Origin: Tritrichomonas foetus
Lineage: Eukaryota; Parabasalia; Tritrichomonadida; Tritrichomonadidae
Reading direction: 5' to 3'
Assembly (NCBI GenBank): GCA_001839685.1
Contig: MLAK01000825.1
Coordinates: forward strand, 1-42,809
DNA length: 42,809 bases
The position numbers and the translations under genes were made by a program. Below, one piece after another: positions 21,895-42,809 of this stretch (positions are counted from its first letter, which is position 1; each line of letters opens with the position of its first letter). A model generated the notes under the pieces. That model had not been told where the DNA came from and searched no databases. It saw only the letters and a list, made by a program, of their open reading frames with translations.

Positions 21895-22931
21895 TTATAT
21901 GTAACATATTATTTTGGCAATTTTCTTTAAGAGTGCCGTTGATATTGTATTTGGTGATCTTTGATAATTTTTAATATAAATATCTCGTAGAGAAAAGTAG
22001 TTTTGTTGTTTGGTTTGAGTGATAGAAAATACACCTCGATGATTTGTTACGTTTGAGTGAAAGATTTCAAAAACTTAACTATTTTTATTCATAAAAATAG
22101 AATTCATCATATGTGCTCCATGGACTCCAATTAATACTTTGATTTTAGAGAAAAACGAAATTTGTGAATAAATGCTGAGTTGATGTATTTTTGGAAAATT
22201 CAAGAAGTCGATCTTTTGTTTTACTAGATATAAAACGATTTCGTTAAAATTGCCAAATTTTCTATCACCTGGGCCATTTTCTTTATTGATACAACACACG
22301 TATCGACTTGTTTTAGCAATAAAGTTTTTAGAAATGAAATTCACCATTAAATGGAGTAAATAAGGATTAGGATAATGTGAAAAATCTGAAGAAATTATAT
22401 AAATAGTTTTTCCAAAAATAATACGATTTTGACCAAAAATGTAATTCTCTTTTTTGATTGAAAGAAAATGGAAAAAATCTAGAGAAAACAAAGTGAATTT
22501 AGATGGTTTGGAAATGTCAGTCATAAAATAGAATTGATCAAAAGGAATAATTTGATGAAGAAAGACAAGTTTTGGAAAAACATCATGAAGAAAATGACCA
22601 TAATTAATGGATGATACATCATGATGAAAAGAAATGACTTTATTGTAAGTTACTATTTCTTGACATCTATTGACACGAAAATAATCTTGAGCTCTTGCAT
22701 AATATAATGAACGAAAAATATAAAGATTTTTTGGAGTAAGTATCGATGCCCTTGATAGAAGAAATTTGTTTTTTTCAATAATCAAATAAATGTCAAATTC
22801 TTTGCTCTTCAACATTTGCGTCCATTTCTGCTGTGTAGGTAAGGGTATTCCATAAATTTTATCTTCCAGAGATGTGTGAGTAGTATTATGACTGATTTCA
22901 AGATCTAAGTGACCGAGAGAGGTAGTGTTAA
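21895..22931 (-). pseudogene. GT61 glycosyltransferase, 3' part, split by a transposon and carrying a nonsense codon
   Basis: The minus-strand frame encodes a glycosyltransferase family 61 (DUF563, EOGT/xylosyltransferase-like) protein. Landmarks are SINYGHFLHDVFPKLVFLHQ, an NRIIFGKTIYI strand, YVCCINKENGPGDRKFGN and the diagnostic GVHGAHMMNSIFM. The upper end of the frame runs into transposon sequence at 22932, which by chance supplies an ATG at 23079. A TAA at 22077-22075 interrupts it after NSIFMNKNS, but the same frame continues with VFEIFHSNVT and TKQQNYFSLRDIYIKNY to a final TAA at 21897-21895, as expected for the family C-terminus. The remaining 5' exon-equivalent is at 26258-26385. 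GT61 enzymes work in the ER/Golgi on glycoprotein glycans. Confidence 0.85.
22928..22931. repeat. Left TTAA target site
   Basis: TTAA immediately outside the left terminal inverted repeat; the matching TTAA is at 26258-26261. Confidence 0.85.
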
Positions 22932-22945
22932 GGGGCAACTGACAT
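22932..22945 (+). repeat. Left terminal inverted repeat
   Basis: GGGGCAACTGACAT, perfect complement of 26244-26257. With the TTAA included, the match is 18 bp. Confidence 0.9.
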
Positions 22946-23079
22946 ATGAAGTGACCGAATGAAAAAAATGAAGTGATTGTTTCTATGTGATCTCTCAATC
23001 GTGATTTGACAGGATTTATCAGAAAAGAATTGAATGCATAAAAAATAGTTCTTTCAATTTTTTTTCTGTGTGCATTCAA

Positions 23080-23379
23080 ATGATCATATTAATCGAAAAA
23101 AATTCTCTTTATCAGAAGATTAGTAATGCTTTCTTTTATTCTTTAATTGGTATGCAATAATATATATATATCGAATAATGAAGACTTTTGCGCAAGAAAA
23201 AATGGTGCAATTTCATATGATTTTGTGATCAAGTTTTGGCGATACAGTTTTAGATAAACATGCATATAGCGTGGGAATTTTAACTTATTTTAAAAGTAAT
23301 AAAATCGATAAAATATTTATATATTATAAAAAAATAGTTACTTAATTGTTTATTTTTCCCCTCCTGTTTTTATAATCTC
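23080..23379. other. Non-coding left portion of the transposon
   Basis: AT-rich 3' flank of the transposase gene inside the element. Nothing else was seen. Confidence 0.4.
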
Positions 23380-26019
23380 TTACAGATCCTGCATAATTTG
23401 CTCATATAATAAAATTTCTGGCCGTGATTTTTTGTCAATCTCAAAAGGACTTTTTATTTGATTGATAAATGAATCTGAAATCAAGAACCACTTATTATTT
23501 TGGCGTACTACATCGAAATAATGCCCAGAATCTGGTAAATCTCGGAAATAAACTATCGATTTCATTGAATATAATTTTTGATTTATATGAAGTGTTTCTT
23601 TGATGTGAAAAATTTGTTCATAATTCGAATCAGTTAAATGAATAATTAAGAGAATGTTGATGGACACAATTTGAGTCATCATTAAAGGAGTATTTCTACA
23701 GAACTGACAAATACTATCATTTATAGGTTCATTTTTACAACAATCTTCAATATTTTGTAATTCAGAGCATGAAATTGAGTAAAGTAGGTTATTTTCCAAC
23801 ACTTCATTTCGAGCGCCACATTGTGAGCATAAAATGGATTTAGCAATAAATCCAGTCATATTTGCTATCATATTATATTTTTCTTCTAAGTCGTTCAATA
23901 AAAATAGTAAAAACGCAGAGGTATCTCCTTTTTCATTGTACTTGATTGTTTGTGTAGAATTATTAATATAATAATTTATTATATAATCAATATCTCTTTT
24001 GTTAACGATGTCTTTTGTACATTTTTTCAAAAATAATAACAAATCGTCTTCTTTATTGAATAATAATAGCTTAGTTCGAAAATGCTCTGAACTCATTAAT
24101 AATTGAATTCCACTGTTTATGTAACAATTATTAGCTATATTATATAAACGAAAAATATTTCCTAGTAATGCTTGATCAAGAAATAGTTTCCCAAAGTTAA
24201 ACAAATCGAAAATGGTCATAGAAAACCAATCATCTGCATTGATGTCCTTAAAAAAAGAATCTTCTTCAGGTGAATTGAAGTTGGTTTCACGAAAATCTAA
24301 ATCGTTTGTTTCTTCTTCTTCTTTGAAATCTGAATGAAGGACATCAGTTTCCCGAAATTCTATATTTATTGGAGTGAAAACTTTCTTTAATTTGTAATCA
24401 CCTTCTTTCCTCCCTGATTGTCTCCTAAGATTTCTAGTTTTGTTTTTTTGTTGTATATATTTTTCTGTTTGTTGCTTTTCTTTGTTTAGGGTTTTTCGCA
24501 GTATATATTTATCGATAATTTGTTTATTATGATCATTTAATTCTGCGATATTAAAATTGTTCATGAGCTGGTAATAAAACTTGTGCCCCTCATTCCAAAG
24601 TAAAACCGTAATTTTCATTCTGGTTGAAAAAGTCATTTTCCAAGATTTATTTTTGGGAGCCAGTTTGATTTTGAGTGAATGTAAACTTTCATTACATTGA
24701 GTATTCTTATGGGGTTCTGTTTTTTCAAAGATAATAACATTATCATCAAGAAACGTATCAAGTCTATTTTTTAAATTAATATTTTTCGCAAAAGCTGGAA
24801 TTTTAAAATCAATTAAATTCTCATGCAAACATTTCTGATGGTTATTCGAAAAATGTTCTGTAATATTAAAAAATTGTTCTTTTTTTGTTATCAGAGGTAA
24901 ATCTCTGTCAAGCATCAGGACTTTAACGAATTTTAAAAAAGACTTGATTATATCTGAAAATATATTTTTATTGTCGAAATTAAATTTAAGAAAACGGTTT
25001 TTAAATTGCTTATATGCGTGATTTACATCTATAAATTGAATAATTTTCCAGTTCAACTTAGTAAATATTCCACCTACATTGTTATCGTTATCCATTGTGA
25101 TACTATCTATTTTTGATAATGAACACCATTTAGAACTTAATTTATTTAAAATTTCTGATTCAAGTGACTGGGGAAATCCTTCGCAATTTCCAATAGACCA
25201 ATGGCTTTTTAATGACACTACATAATAGTCAATTATNNNNNNNNNNNNNNNNNNNNNNNNNNNNNNNNNNNNNNNNNNNNNNNNNNNNNNNNNNNNNNNN
25301 NNNNNNNNNNNNNNNNNNNNNNNNNNNNNNNNNNNNNNNNNNNNNNNNNNNNNNNNNNNNNNNNNNNNNNNNNNNNNNNNNNNNNNNNNNNNNNNNNNNN
25401 NNNNNNNNNNNNNNNNNNNNNNNNNNNNNNTTTTTTTTTCGGATTTGGCTTTTATTTCACTGAATTTATTAGATAATTCGCAAAAAGAACTATTTAATTC
25501 GGTTATTTTTTGTTTTAACTGAGTGTTTTCATATGTCAATGACGAGATCTTTTGTTTCAAACGGTTATGTTCCTTTTTTAATAACTCATTTTCAATTCTG
25601 CATTGAAATTGATCAAAATTTGGGTTGCTTTGGAGCAAACTGATAATTTCCGTTTTATTCATTGAATCAATATAGTTTTGAACATCTATATATTCACTAA
25701 TTGCCGGTACATTAATTATCTCTGTATGAGAAAACGACAATAAGTGAAATTTATTATTGCATTCATGAAAAGTTTGTTTCTCCGGGAAATTTGGAGCTTT
25801 TGAATCTACATAATTCTTTGTTTGAATCAGATGACAGTTTTTGTGAAAAAACAAGCGCATTTGATTGATATTATAGGTTGTAATAGGAATATTGCAGATT
25901 TTCAAAGCCTGCTCAATTGCAGTTCTTCGCATTTTGCTTCCCTGTAGTGAATGGTGATAGCAAAATATATAGGGATAGAAAAAAGTTAGTTTATTCGCTG
26001 GAACAAACACTTTATCCAT
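23380..26019 (-). CDS. Transposase fused to a C19 ubiquitin-specific protease domain
   Basis: An 879-residue frame from ATG, with about 65 residues unknown because of the N gap (numbers assume the gap size is right). Residues 1-130 are unassigned; about 145-195 are a coiled coil. The DDE-like core follows the gap: TMDNDN (D310/D312), FIDVNHAYKQFKNRF (D331, H334), and CNESLHSLKIKLAPKNKSWK (E444); the first catalytic Asp is probably inside the gap. A basic and then acidic linker spans about 500-600. The C-terminal 260 residues are a peptidase C19 domain: Cys box LYNIANNCYINSGIQLL (C632), zinc-ribbon pairs C731/C734 and C771/C774, His box SGHYFDVVRQNNKWFLISDS (H833), in correct order. The joint between DDE and protease lies outside the gap, so the fusion is real in this sequence. 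It likely mobilises the element and removes ubiquitin from the transposase or a host factor; the latter is inference. Confidence 0.8.
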   Translation of the reverse strand: MDKVFVPANKLTFFYPYIFCYHHSLQGSKMRRTAIEQALKICNIPITTYNINQMRLFFHKNCHLIQTKNYVDSKAPNFPEKQTFHECNNKFHLLSFSHTEIINVPAISEYIDVQNYIDSMNKTEIISLLQSNPNFDQFQCRIENELLKKEHNRLKQKISSLTYENTQLKQKITELNSSFCELSNKFSEIKAKSEKKXXXXXXXXXXXXXXXXXXXXXXXXXXXXXXXXXXXXXXXXXXXXXXXXXXXXXXXXXXXXXXXXXIIDYYVVSLKSHWSIGNCEGFPQSLESEILNKLSSKWCSLSKIDSITMDNDNNVGGIFTKLNWKIIQFIDVNHAYKQFKNRFLKFNFDNKNIFSDIIKSFLKFVKVLMLDRDLPLITKKEQFFNITEHFSNNHQKCLHENLIDFKIPAFAKNINLKNRLDTFLDDNVIIFEKTEPHKNTQCNESLHSLKIKLAPKNKSWKMTFSTRMKITVLLWNEGHKFYYQLMNNFNIAELNDHNKQIIDKYILRKTLNKEKQQTEKYIQQKNKTRNLRRQSGRKEGDYKLKKVFTPINIEFRETDVLHSDFKEEEETNDLDFRETNFNSPEEDSFFKDINADDWFSMTIFDLFNFGKLFLDQALLGNIFRLYNIANNCYINSGIQLLMSSEHFRTKLLLFNKEDDLLLFLKKCTKDIVNKRDIDYIINYYINNSTQTIKYNEKGDTSAFLLFLLNDLEEKYNMIANMTGFIAKSILCSQCGARNEVLENNLLYSISCSELQNIEDCCKNEPINDSICQFCRNTPLMMTQIVSINILLIIHLTDSNYEQIFHIKETLHINQKLYSMKSIVYFRDLPDSGHYFDVVRQNNKWFLISDSFINQIKSPFEIDKKSRPEILLYEQIMQDL
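25237..25430. other. Assembly gap (194 N)
   Basis: A run of N inside the transposase gene, next to a poly(T) run on its right side. The true length is unknown; frame continuity across it is not proof. Confidence 1.
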
Positions 26020-26116
26020 TTTGAAAATGGCGGATTTTTAGTAAAAAAATTGAATAATATAATTTCAGGGATTATTGAAAATATTTCAATGAAAAAGTTG
26101 ATAAAATTGTGAAAGA

Positions 26117-26195
26117 AACTTTTTCAATAATTCTAGTAACATAACTTTTTAAGTGACGAATAACTTTTTCAATAATTCTAGTAACATAACTTTTT
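26117..26195. repeat. 34-bp direct repeat near the right transposon end
   Basis: The 34-bp unit beginning AACTTTTTCAATAATTCTAG occurs at 26117-26150 and 26162-26195, 45 bp apart, apparently identical. It lies between the transposase start and the right terminal repeat, where subterminal transposase-binding sites or the promoter would be expected. Confidence 0.9.
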
Positions 26196-26243
26196 CTAAA
26201 TCATTCATAGAGCNGCTTCAAAATTTTGATATAGCTCGATGTG

Positions 26244-26257
26244 ATGTCAGTTGCCCC
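26244..26257 (-). repeat. Right terminal inverted repeat
   Basis: ATGTCAGTTGCCCC, perfect complement of the left end at 22932-22945, followed by TTAA at 26258-26261. Confidence 0.9.
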
Positions 26258-26385
26258 TTAAAAGCTTTGAGGTCAACTTTCATAGAAAGATTGTCAAAAC
26301 AGGTAAATGGGGTGGTGATAATCATGAGCTGAACTTTTTCAGGAAAAATAAAATGTAGAATCCATGGAATTATTCCGAAAATCAT
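26258..26385 (-). pseudogene. GT61 glycosyltransferase, 5' part
   Basis: On the minus strand an ATG at 26385 opens MIFGIIPWILHFIFPEKVQL and continues to KVDLKAFN at the TTAA. The first 14 residues are hydrophobic, fitting the signal anchor of a Golgi type II glycosyltransferase. An in-frame TGA lies just upstream (about 26403), so the ATG is the likely native start. Joined at one TTAA copy to the fragment at 22927, the frame is preserved (128 + 1033 = 1161 nt = 387 codons). Confidence 0.8.
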
Positions 26386-26839
26386 TGTTGAAACGAAATG
26401 TCAAATTTTTATCTAATACCAACCTCTAATGCCAATATAAACTTTTTGTGTATTTTTGAATTGGCAGAAATCTATTAGATGGAATCATTTGAAAGTTTAT
26501 ATATAGAAAAATATTTTTCAATGATTACTTTTTTTGGTTCATTGGTTAACTAACCCTTGGTTCGACTTTACTTCTCCATATATTTTTTTCCCTTTTTTGT
26601 CACCGTCATTCTTCCTGCAAGCTTGATTTCTCATTACGAAATTTCAGGAAGTCCTTCAGTTATCTGTATTGTTAGACATTTATTTCTGTCATTTTTCACT
26701 TTTTTACCCTAATTTTTTCTACAGTGTTGTTTTCATGAGGTTGCTTTTGTTTATAGTCATAGTTAATCCATTGCCAGGGTCATTGTTGTTCTGAATTTTC
26801 AAAATGTTTTTCGGTGATTCATATCCATATCACTATTAC
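26386..26839. other. Upstream region of the broken GT61 gene
   Basis: AT-rich, no gene recognised. Confidence 0.35.
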
Positions 26840-40141: not shown

Positions 40142-42809
40142 ATGTTGACTGTTGCTCATGTGACACAGCTTGAGCAACAAGTCGCCGATTTGTTGACCAA
40201 TAAATATCAAACTTCCCGGTCGCAATTTACTCACACAGCAAGGCTGCATAACATGGCGAGTGAACATGCAAAAAATATATTGAAACGAAAAGTCAGGAAT
40301 TTACACGAAGGAATCAATGAAAGAAAAGCAGGATTTCAACAATACACAGAGATATGTTTTATTACGCATCCAATAGAAAAAAACGAACAGAGGGCTCAAA
40401 GAGTATTCGACGCTATTCTTCATAAGTACGGCGGCAGGCTCGATTTGGCAAGAAAAGCAAAAATAGATTCCTATGGAGTATCATTGACTCCTCTCCGCTC
40501 AGCTCAACCCGATAAAAATAATACCATTATCGTTGTGATCGTTTTGGCACTTTCTCCAGCCAAGGTGCGCGTCAGCAGCATTGAAAACATTTTCGTCGAG
40601 ATTAGAGAAGACGCAGCATCAGTTTTTAGTATCGATAGATACCATCAATACATTAACAGATATCGAAGGGCTGTTCAAATGGAGCCATTCACAAAAATAC
40701 AGGAATTTACAGGCACCAATGTTAAAGTATATGCCGATCCCAGAATTTACCAATATGATAGGGCTGGCATTTTGTTTTTGCATTTAATGCAAAACGATGA
40801 TTACTTGAAGCTAGTTCATATGAACTTTACAACAATTTTCATAAACGTCGAAGATCCAGATGATGAAGACAAAAGAAAAATTAACTTTGTTTTCATTCGA
40901 AAAGTGAACGAAGCGAGTCAATATTCCTTGTTTGTGAAATGTTCAATTCGAGAATTGCCAAATTATGGTCAAATGAACAAAGCTCGAATCAATTATCACG
41001 CAGGAAATATAGAAGAAGAAAATATGGAAAAACCACATGTTGAAGAACTAATTCAAATTGAAGGATCGTTAAGTGAAGAAGGATCAGTTGGGGCTTCTGA
41101 AGAAAAAATTGTTACACCATCTGCTGTTGAAGAACCAGTTAAAGAAACCAAAGACGAAGCCAAAGACGAAGCCAAAGAAGAAACCTCAGATGAATCTACA
41201 GAAGAAACCACTGAAGAAACCACCGAAGAAACTACCGAAGAAACCAAAGAAGAAACAGTTTCTAGCTTCCAAAACGAGCCAGTTCCATTCCAAGGAGCAA
41301 CAGCATTTGCACCAAGTCCAAAGAAAGAACGTTGGCATCGTATTAGTGATACAGTTGAATCACATTCACCATATGATGATTCACACGATTATGATAATAT
41401 TCCTAAAGAACTTCGTAAATCACATAAGACAGTTGTTCCAGGAATTCCAAGTGGTTCAGAAGGACATCATCCACAAAAAGAACTTGAAGATCAATTTGTT
41501 GATGAAAGTGGTGTTGCAGCACGTGCAGCTCAATTGAAAGAAGAACTCGAAGCACCAATTCCAACACCATCTGCTGTTGAAGAACCAGTTAAAGAAACCA
41601 AAGACGAAGCCAAAGACGAAGCCAAAGAAGAAACCTCAGATGAATCTACAGAAGAAACCACTGAAGAAACCACCGAAGAAACTACCGAAGAAACCAAAGA
41701 AGAAACAGTTTCTAGCTTCCAAAACGAGCCAGTTCCATTCCAAGGAGCAACAGCATTTGCACCAAGTCCAAAGAAAGAACGTTGGCATCGTATTAGTGAT
41801 ACAGTTGAATCACATTCACCATATGATGATTCACACGATTATGATAATATTCCTAAAGAACTTCGTAAATCACATAAGACAGTTGTTCCAGGAATTCCAA
41901 GTGGTTCAGAAGGACATCATCCACAAAAAGAACTTGAAGATCAATTTGTTGATGAAAGTGGTGTTGCAGCACGTGCAGCTCAATTGAAAGAAGAACTCGA
42001 AGCACCAATTCCAACACCATCTGCTGTTGAAGAACCAGTTAAAGAAACCAAAGACGAAGCCAAAGACGAAGCCAAAGAAGAAACCTCAGATGAATCTACA
42101 GAAGAAACCACTGAAGAAACCACCGAAGAAACTACCGAAGAAACCAAAGAAGAAACAGTTTCTAGCTTCCAAAACGAGCCAGTTCCATTCCAAGGAGCAA
42201 CAGCATTTGCACCAAGTCCAAAGAAAGAACGTTGGCATCGTATTAGTGATACAGTTGAATCACATTCACCATATGATGATTCACACGATTATGATAATAT
42301 TCCTAAAGAACTTCGTAAATCACATAAGACAGTTGTTCCAGGAATTCCAAGTGGTTCAGAAGGACATCATCCACAAAAAGAACTTGAAGATCAATTTGTT
42401 GATGAAAGTGGTGTTGCAGCACGTGCAGCTCAATTGAAAGAAGAACTCGAAGCACCAATTCCAACACCATCTGCTGTTGAAGAACCAGTTAAAGAAACCA
42501 AAGACGAAGCCAAAGACGAAGCCAAAGAAGAAACCTCAGATGAATCTACAGAAGAAACCACTGAAGAAACCACCGAAGAAACTACCGAAGAAACCAAAGA
42601 AGAAACAGTTTCTAGCTTCCAAAACGAGCCAGTTCCATTCCAAGGAGCAACAGCATTTGCACCAAGTCCAAAGAAAGAACGTTGGCATCGTATTAGTGAT
42701 ACAGTTGAATCACATTCACCATATGATGATTCACACGATTATGATAATATTCCTAAAGAACTTCGTAAATCACATAAGACAGTTGTTCCAGGAATTCCAA
42801 GTGGTTCAG
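40142..42809 (+). CDS. Large repeat protein, partial at the right edge; N-terminal region faintly CAP-like
   Basis: An ATG at 40142 opens a frame that stays open for 889 codons to the end of the window, so the 3' end is missing. Residues about 5-135 weakly recall a CAP/SCP domain: LLTNKYQTSRSQFTHTARLH and MASEHAKNIL at the start, then IDSYGVSLTP and IIVVIVLALS; family-typical residues are too few for a firm call. Residues 135-320 are unassigned (KVYADPRIYQYDRAGILFLH). From residue 325 the protein is a tandem array of 150-residue repeats, each with an acidic EETTEETTEE-type segment and a more complex part (FQGATAFAPSPKKERWHRIS, YDNIPKELRKSHKTVVPGIP). There is no signal peptide. The repeats suggest an elongated structural or surface-associated protein; function unknown. 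Confidence 0.85.
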   Translation, partial: MLTVAHVTQLEQQVADLLTNKYQTSRSQFTHTARLHNMASEHAKNILKRKVRNLHEGINERKAGFQQYTEICFITHPIEKNEQRAQRVFDAILHKYGGRLDLARKAKIDSYGVSLTPLRSAQPDKNNTIIVVIVLALSPAKVRVSSIENIFVEIREDAASVFSIDRYHQYINRYRRAVQMEPFTKIQEFTGTNVKVYADPRIYQYDRAGILFLHLMQNDDYLKLVHMNFTTIFINVEDPDDEDKRKINFVFIRKVNEASQYSLFVKCSIRELPNYGQMNKARINYHAGNIEEENMEKPHVEELIQIEGSLSEEGSVGASEEKIVTPSAVEEPVKETKDEAKDEAKEETSDESTEETTEETTEETTEETKEETVSSFQNEPVPFQGATAFAPSPKKERWHRISDTVESHSPYDDSHDYDNIPKELRKSHKTVVPGIPSGSEGHHPQKELEDQFVDESGVAARAAQLKEELEAPIPTPSAVEEPVKETKDEAKDEAKEETSDESTEETTEETTEETTEETKEETVSSFQNEPVPFQGATAFAPSPKKERWHRISDTVESHSPYDDSHDYDNIPKELRKSHKTVVPGIPSGSEGHHPQKELEDQFVDESGVAARAAQLKEELEAPIPTPSAVEEPVKETKDEAKDEAKEETSDESTEETTEETTEETTEETKEETVSSFQNEPVPFQGATAFAPSPKKERWHRISDTVESHSPYDDSHDYDNIPKELRKSHKTVVPGIPSGSEGHHPQKELEDQFVDESGVAARAAQLKEELEAPIPTPSAVEEPVKETKDEAKDEAKEETSDESTEETTEETTEETTEETKEETVSSFQNEPVPFQGATAFAPSPKKERWHRISDTVESHSPYDDSHDYDNIPKELRKSHKTVVPGIPSGS
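41114..42809 (+). repeat. 450-bp in-frame tandem repeats
   Basis: Units begin at 41114, 41564, 42014 and 42464 (the last is cut by the window edge). I saw no difference between copies over the lines compared, including third-codon positions. The unit is exactly 150 codons, so copy number can change without shifting the frame. Confidence 0.95.

What the first reader, a model, noticed from the sequence alone, without database searches (positions are those of the whole stretch)
23380..26019. Transposase fused to a ubiquitin-specific protease inside a TIR-bounded element
Seen: one frame joins a DDE-like core (D310, D331-x2-H334, E444) to a C-terminal peptidase C19 domain with Cys632, two zinc-binding CxxC pairs and His833 in the right order. 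The joint is outside the assembly gap. Known: plant Mutator-like elements (Kaonashi/KI-MULEs) carry ULP1-type SUMO proteases. I do not know of a transposase carrying a USP-type deubiquitinase. Inference: the protease could stabilise the transposase against the proteasome or strip ubiquitin from host chromatin at the target.
Basis: partly seen in the sequence, partly recalled or inferred. Interest (0 to 1): 0.93.

Follow-up and report, generated by a model that had tools for sequence, protein, structure and literature searches.

The report
Jumping gene with built-in ubiquitin remover
A mobile DNA element, found here in at least 15 nearly identical places, encodes one protein in which a transposase is joined to a predicted ubiquitin-removing enzyme, a pairing that three other, distantly related transposase families of the same genome also carry and that would likely shield the transposase from being destroyed by its host.

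Summary
Window 22928-26261 is a 3.3-kb element with perfect 18-bp TIRs beginning with TTAA. Its minus-strand ORF joins a DDE transposase (PF20700, E=3.2e-12, seen in a copy without the long gap) to a C-terminal ubiquitin-specific protease (PF00443, E=2.6e-13). In 13 of 15 near-identical genomic places both domains lie in one open frame. The element is Kolobok-like (TTAA, GG ends, DDE, H2CH), but no THAP domain was found. Three more transposase families here (24-34% identical to it) carry the same C-terminal arm, in the same order (DDE, basic stretch, acidic stretch, USP) and 188-218 residues from the catalytic Glu column to the USP Cys. Three unfused relatives stop after the basic tail. Fused family C has 93 TIR matches in the genome. 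The active-site Cys is kept in 6 of 6 readable Cys boxes, the His in 4 of 5; activity is untested. A precedent exists: a 2010 paper names a T. vaginalis transposase_11 + peptidase C19 protein (PMC2836005). So this is a new variant of a known kind. Most likely role, inferred: protecting the transposase from degradation.

The parts
22928..26261 (-). whole transposable element, TTAA to TTAA (gene on minus strand)
   Evidence: 18-bp perfect TIRs; same ends in 10 of 10 full copies at 10 different flanks
26244..26261 (-). TIR at the 5' side of the gene, TTAAGGGGCAACTGACAT
22928..22945 (+). TIR at the 3' side of the gene, TTAAGGGGCAACTGACAT
26117..26196 (.). subterminal direct repeats, period 26, 3.3 copies; candidate transposase-binding sites (inferred); two of the ten full copies (L023, L029) lack stretches here
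   Evidence: TRF; deletions
23380..26019 (-). ORF: coiled-coil-like N-part, transposase, linker, ubiquitin-specific protease
25237..25430 (.). assembly gap (194 N) hiding the first catalytic Asp; flanked by a T9 run at 25431-25439 where copies disagree
24688..25236 (-). readable DDE core: D359/D361, D380-x2-H383, H2CH and E493 (P0002 numbering)
   Evidence: PF20700 E=3.2e-12 in P0002; invariant columns
24823..24855 (-). H438-x4-H443-x2-C446-x-H448 (H2CH, a Kolobok hallmark)
   Evidence: hallmark from PMC6004289
24151..24555 (-). linker: basic stretch followed by acidic D/E-rich stretch, same order in four families
23404..24150 (-). USP (peptidase C19 / UCH) domain with C681, C780/C783, C820/C823, H882 (P0002 numbering)
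   Evidence: PF00443 E=2.2e-13; profile match to an Entamoeba USP, hhalign probability 97.3%; alignments
22075..22927 (-). remainder of a host glycosyltransferase-61 gene that the element interrupts near its 5' end
   Evidence: PF04577 E=8.7e-21; with one TTAA between the joined flanks a 331-codon frame spans the site, 46 codons of it upstream

Best explanation
This is a Kolobok-like cut-and-paste transposon whose single long protein carries a predicted ubiquitin-specific protease at the C-terminus of its DDE transposase, and that domain would most likely take ubiquitin off the transposase itself and so keep it from the proteasome. Shown: the element, its TIRs with TTAA ends, the fusion, the 15 near-identical places, and the same fusion in three other, distantly related transposase families of the same genome. 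Predicted from conserved residues: the USP is a working cysteine protease for ubiquitin. Inferred: the USP rides with the transposase multimer to the element ends and target, acts in cis or on neighbouring subunits, and raises the amount or dwell time of active transposase, favouring elements that keep it. The basic and acidic stretches would serve as a DNA-contacting tail and a flexible spacer. The family was probably active until recently, as full copies differ by at most one substitution besides some deletions.
For: PF20700 and PF00443 in one ORF. 15 places at 100% aa identity over the last 306 residues, 13 with DDE and USP in one frame. Nine full copies compared with L025 show 0 or 1 substitution over 3139-3452 bases. 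Families B, C and D carry UCH: 8.8e-9; 4.5e-5 (23.6 bits, just under the 23.9 cut-off); 3.5e-5 (24.0 bits, only the first half of the domain is in the frame read). Same order and spacing: Glu column to Cys 188, 218, 213 and 201 residues. Cys kept in 6 of 6 readable Cys boxes (A, A', B, C, C', D); the residue five before it is Asn in 4 and Gln in 1 of the 5 readable; His kept in 4 of 5 readable His boxes (A, B, B', C; Arg in the relic L057). Family C is mobile: its two coding copies stay alike up to a TTAA and then differ; 93 TIR matches with 0 in the reversed control; a derivative, L059, shares its TIR and 495 bp of its end. Helitron-encoded DUBs favour K48 chains among others and their authors propose such a protective role (PMC9741609, passages).
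Against: No activity or expression data. In family A the third USP triad residue (Asp/Asn) is Ser897; the following Asp898 is kept. dN/dS between family A and the C373 relic is 0.53 for the USP and 0.57 for the transposase C-part plus linker, neither significant (Fisher p=0.13 and 0.18), so selection on the USP is not shown this way. Two AlphaFold models were unusable (mean pLDDT 34.1 and 33.8). Sequence matches to solved USPs are weak (A 0.0012, C 0.19, B 0.21; D none). Inverted ends were not established for families B, B' and D. The start of the protein is unresolved at the poly-A run. Nothing tested tells self-deubiquitination from action on chromatin.
Confidence: 0.5

Rival explanations
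1. The USP acts on chromatin or repair proteins at the donor or target site, for example on ubiquitinated histones, to help insertion or repair of the break.
For: Tethering to a DNA-bound transposase would place it there. Human USP12/46, the nearest solved structures to family A by sequence (E 0.0012-0.0019), act on histones H2A/H2B (recalled). Bao et al. propose a repair role for Ulp1/OTU domains of transposases (PMC2836005, passage).
Against: No substrate evidence. The PDB match is weak and may reflect general USP similarity; families C and B match other USPs best (USP28 E=0.19, USP18 E=0.21) and D none.
Confidence: 0.28
2. The USP counters a host silencing or defence pathway that uses ubiquitin, in trans, in the manner of viral deubiquitinases.
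For: Transposons and herpesviruses share a deubiquitinase family (PMC9741609). Ulp1-carrying KIU/Vandal elements are tied to escape from silencing (PMC13317346).
Against: Fusion to the transposase rather than a separate gene favours a local role; I looked for no ubiquitin-using silencing pathway in this host and know of none.
Confidence: 0.12
3. The USP is a passenger captured from a host gene, with no function for the element.
For: Transposons capture host genes; unfused relatives in the same genome have intact frames (L051, L052, L054); dN/dS is not significant.
Against: Families only 24-34% identical keep the same arm, the same architecture and the active-site Cys.
Confidence: 0.07
4. The fusion is an assembly or annotation artefact.
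For: The assembly is gapped and the poly-A run is read differently in different copies.
Against: 13 of 15 places join DDE and USP in one frame, and independent families do the same.
Confidence: 0.02

Closest known systems
T. vaginalis XP_001314237.1, transposase_11 + peptidase C19 (cited in PMC2836005; passage seen)
   Same: A transposase fused to a USP-type domain; a parabasalid host, if this genome is one
   Different: Transposase_11 (IS5-like) superfamily, not Kolobok-like; USP subfamily given there as cd02657.
Ginger1 transposons (PMC2836005, passages)
   Same: DDE transposase with a C-terminal deubiquitinase- or deSUMOylase-like cysteine protease
   Different: OTU or Ulp1 instead of USP; Gypsy-integrase-type transposase
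Helitrons with VTD or OTU deubiquitinase domains (PMC9741609, passages)
   Same: Transposon-encoded deubiquitinase in the same protein as the mobility enzyme
   Different: Rolling-circle RepHel protein; a different protease family; the VTD domains were tested biochemically, the OTU ones not
KIU/Kaonashi (Vandal-type) MULEs with Ulp1 (PMC13317346, passages)
   Same: DNA transposon carrying a ubiquitin-family cysteine protease
   Different: SUMO-type Ulp1, in a VANC-type gene rather than on the transposase; plant non-TIR MULEs
Kolobok superfamily (PMC6004289; T. vaginalis Kolobok listed in PMC7845603; passages)
   Same: TTAA target, RR termini, DDE, H2CH
   Different: USP added at the C-terminus; no THAP domain found

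Membership tests
Kolobok superfamily (features as in PMC6004289) | TTAA target site | tested here: met
   Ends TTAA...TTAA in 10 of 10 full copies, though the TIR pattern used contained TTAA. Independent support: family C copies diverge exactly at TTAA; joined flanks with one TTAA carry long host frames at 3 of 10 sites (331, 527 and 698 codons, the last with only 15 codons upstream), the other seven 34-191 codons. No empty site found in this assembly
Kolobok superfamily | RR terminal nucleotides | tested here: met
   GGGGCAACTGACAT after TTAA
[quoted passage not shown]
   D287, D359/D361, D380-x2-H383, E493 invariant in 6 sequences; C/DxxH rule from PMC10045372
Kolobok superfamily | H2CH motif | tested here: met
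   H438, H443, C446, H448 in family A; the second His is Cys in family C; motif not seen in unfused L052 and L054
Kolobok superfamily | THAP DNA-binding domain (usual, per PMC6004289) | tested here: not met
   No THAP in Pfam at E<=5. I therefore call it Kolobok-like rather than a settled member
Mutator (MuDR) superfamily (the name of its Pfam hit, PF20700) | long target site duplication | tested here: not met
   Only TTAA is shared by the two ends; the bases outside differ. TvMULE TSDs are listed as 10-14 bp (PMC2725143)
USP / peptidase C19 | Pfam UCH match above the gathering score | tested here: met
   A 50.6 bits vs 23.9; B 35.8, D 24.0; C 23.6, just below
USP / peptidase C19 | catalytic Cys, His, oxyanion Asn and two zinc CxxC pairs | tested here: met
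   C681, H882, N676, C780/C783, C820/C823
USP / peptidase C19 | third triad residue Asp/Asn | tested here: not met
   Ser897 in family A at that column, next residue Asp898; Asp in B and in C
USP / peptidase C19 | ubiquitin hydrolysis | not testable with these tools
   needs biochemistry

The most novel reading that the evidence does not exclude
Removal of ubiquitin is a built-in, selected step of DNA transposition in this protist lineage: a USP arm has been kept through deep divergence in at least four Kolobok-like transposase families, and a T. vaginalis IS5-type transposase named in print also has one, so the fused transposase works as a self-protecting or chromatin-editing machine.
Probability: 0.42. 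Interest if true: 0.82.

Novelty: new variant of a known kind. Interest (0 to 1): 0.62.

Why it matters
Several unrelated transposon classes have gained OTU, Ulp1 or VTD proteases. A USP fused to Kolobok-like transposases in four deeply diverged families, next to unfused relatives in the same genome, is a natural comparison for asking what ubiquitin does to a transposase. It makes the suggestion that the ubiquitin pathway is involved in transposition (PMC2836005) testable with one point mutant.

Tried and rejected
Structure: a single-sequence model of the USP region (pLDDT 34.1) and a five-sequence alignment model (pLDDT 33.8) were both too poor; no fold search was run on them.

Relatives elsewhere: three protein searches returned no fused protein outside this genome. 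One search (limit E<=10) gave five proteins: P0003, two Entamoeba USPs and two plant USPs. P0004 aligns to the profile in its USP part only; Pfam finds UCH and no transposase in P0004, P0005 and P0006; P0007 was not scanned by me, its precomputed domains are UCH ones. Candidates were capped and shared words are needed, so absence elsewhere is not shown. The T. vaginalis precedent was not returned either.

One origin or several: the transposase tree groups A, D, B and B' (90/99) and leaves C unsure. The USP tree is unresolved; one clade is not rejected (p-AU 0.147). Neither settles it.

Ends of other fused families: a candidate end of B has 5 forward and 0 reverse matches, so no inverted partner was found. 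A candidate end of B' has 8 matches at up to 3 mismatches against 30 in the reversed control, so it is inconclusive. Ends of D were not sought.

Empty site: not found in this assembly. PHROGs and NCBIfam gave nothing above noise; Rfam gave no match in the window. Paper searches for a Kolobok-USP or other USP-transposase report; of these papers I found only PMC2836005 to bear on it. Gladyshev and Arkhipova 2009 (PMC7187635) is not held. Meng 2011 (T. vaginalis Kolobok) and the original KI-MULE paper were seen only as references. Of all papers cited I saw passages, not the whole text.

Full report
What is in the window. The element runs from 22928 to 26261 with an 18-bp perfect inverted repeat, TTAAGGGGCAACTGACAT. 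Its gene is on the minus strand: 879 codons from ATG at 26019 to the stop at 23380, with 194 N in the middle. Pfam finds UCH/PF00443 at residues 624-872 (E=2.2e-13). The gap hides much of the transposase. A copy without the long gap (L023, 928 residues with one X, P0002) shows PF20700 Mutator-like transposase at 220-447 (E=3.2e-12) and UCH at 673-921 (E=2.6e-13) in one frame.

Copies. The assembly (63.7 Mb, 1064 contigs) has 15 places matching the last 306 residues at 100% identity, one near-identical place with frame damage (C436) and one older relic (C373). In 13 of the 15 the catalytic Glu and the USP lie in one open frame; C552 lacks most of the transposase part in the assembly and C507 has a break at an N. 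Ten copies have both TIRs (C436 among them); nine compared with L025 show 0 or 1 substitution over 3139-3452 bases, besides deletions in L023, L029 and L036. Gap filling by the assembler may inflate this identity, but the outer flanks are ten different sequences. The TIR occurs 41 times, 19 forward and 22 reverse, with 0 in the reversed control; one pair, not read, is only about 1.1 kb apart (C455), which suggests a deletion derivative.

A caveat. Upstream of the transposase there is a poly-A run. Of ten full copies five read A9: three of them (L025, L028, L029) break the ORF into 222 and 731 codons, and L035 and L036 have further breaks. Two read A9-N-A9 and give 928 codons, and three have a longer gap there. 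Whether the N-terminal coiled-coil-like part belongs to the same protein is open. The transposase-USP joint is not affected.

Kind of transposon. TTAA ends, GG after TTAA, D287, D359/D361, D380-x2-H383, E493 and the H2CH motif H438/H443/C446/H448 match the Kolobok features given in PMC6004289, although Pfam's name for the matching model is Mutator. No THAP domain was found, so I call it Kolobok-like. In the window the element sits near the 5' end of a glycosyltransferase-61 gene: with one TTAA between the joined flanks, a 331-codon frame crosses the site. Two of the other nine full copies also lie in long frames (527 and 698 codons, the latter with only 15 codons upstream); the remaining seven sites give 34-191 codons. 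No empty site was found.

The same fusion in distant families. A transposase search of the genome returned relatives down to about 21% identity; searches with families C and B added more. Family B (C755; matches of 100% identity at C539 and C322) has UCH at E=8.8e-9; C755 has one in-frame stop inside the transposase. Family C (C802; C437 100% identical over 720 residues) has UCH at E=4.5e-5, 23.6 bits against a cut-off of 23.9. Family D (C586, frames broken) has UCH at E=3.5e-5, 24.0 bits, over the first half of the domain; its His box was not in the frame read. Relics with pieces of the same arm are C373, C592, C124 and C263. In A, B, C and D the order is DDE, basic stretch, acidic stretch, USP, and the distance from the catalytic Glu column to the USP Cys is 188, 218, 213 and 201 residues. 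In family D the Glu itself is Val. Three relatives have no USP in their transposase frame: L051 (425 codons), L052 (394) and L054 (408); they end 101-122 residues after the Glu with a basic tail. For L052 and L054 TTAAGGG-type ends, 15 of 16 bases alike, enclose no other frame of 110 codons or more; no such ends were found for L051, and a 378-codon frame downstream of it was not scanned.

Family C is also mobile. Downstream of the stop its two coding copies stay alike until ...TTTATCCTTAA and then differ. The end sequence TTAAGGATAAACTCCGGTG has 93 matches at up to 2 mismatches, 47 forward and 46 reverse, 0 in the reversed control. One of the roughly 3-kb pairs (C573, L059) shares 27 bp of TIR and 495 bp (94.5%) with family C and holds no frame of 90 codons or more, though it has a 123-N gap. 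So the fused gene is probably the source of transposase for many non-autonomous copies (inference from one copy read). For families B and B' no inverted ends could be shown.

Is the USP likely to work? In family A the Cys, His, oxyanion Asn and both zinc CxxC pairs align with a cellular Entamoeba USP, profile-profile probability 97.3%. The third triad position is Ser, followed by the conserved Asp. Across families the Cys is present in 6 of 6 readable Cys boxes and the His in 4 of 5. dN/dS of A against the C373 relic is 0.53 for the USP (170 codons) and 0.57 for the transposase C-part plus linker (175 codons), not significant. Models were too poor to use.

How it may work. Retention of an active-site-bearing deubiquitinase on transposases only 24-34% identical (local alignments) argues for use by the element. 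The simplest use is protection of the transposase from ubiquitin-dependent loss; action on histones or repair proteins at the site is the main rival. Neither was tested. Authors of PMC2836005 and PMC9741609 proposed a repair role and a protective role for other transposon proteases (passages).

Novelty. PMC2836005 states that T. vaginalis XP_001314237.1 joins transposase_11 and peptidase C19, so a USP on a transposase is not new. I found no report of a Kolobok-like transposase with a USP in the searched library, which lacks most subscription journals. New here, as far as those searches go: another transposase superfamily, four diverged families, unfused relatives beside them, and a conserved four-part architecture.

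Host. Not named. I take it for a parabasalid close to Tritrichomonas foetus, from AT-richness, a weak DUF3447 match in L047 (20.5 bits, below its cut-off) and a Myb protein whose PDB matches include three that I recall as T. vaginalis; this is inference.

Noticed in passing
window 22075-22927 and 26262-26400: A glycosyltransferase-61 gene (PF04577, E=8.7e-21) is interrupted near its 5' end by the element; its remaining frame now begins inside the element's 3' end. Copy L028 (C148) shows a similar element-host frame (540 codons, gene not identified).
   Followed up: partly
G000 C592 (L047) and C755 (L048): Family B' transposase is preceded in frame by a weak DUF3447-like (ankyrin-type) stretch; the stretch before the family B transposase looks similar by eye but has no Pfam match, as if an N-terminal part came from a host ankyrin gene.
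   Followed up: no
G000 C326:127951-128808 (L058): A 456-codon frame matches the family B USP (24%) and groups with it in a tree (97/94, long branches); no transposase in the 1.5 kb read. A possible domesticated or donor copy.
   Followed up: partly
G000 C573, C115, C141 and others: Family C ends enclose many stretches of about 3 kb; the one read (L059) has no frame of 90 codons, so a large non-autonomous family may depend on the USP-fused transposase.
   Followed up: partly
window 25431-25439 and the same place in copies: Poly-A run (T on the + strand) read as A9, A9-N-A9 or a gap in different copies; assembly error, two ORFs and programmed slippage are all possible.
   Followed up: partly
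window 41114-42809: 3.8 copies of a 450-bp tandem repeat, 100% matches, with inner 36-bp and 12-bp periods that look coding (Glu/Thr-rich, by eye).
   Followed up: no
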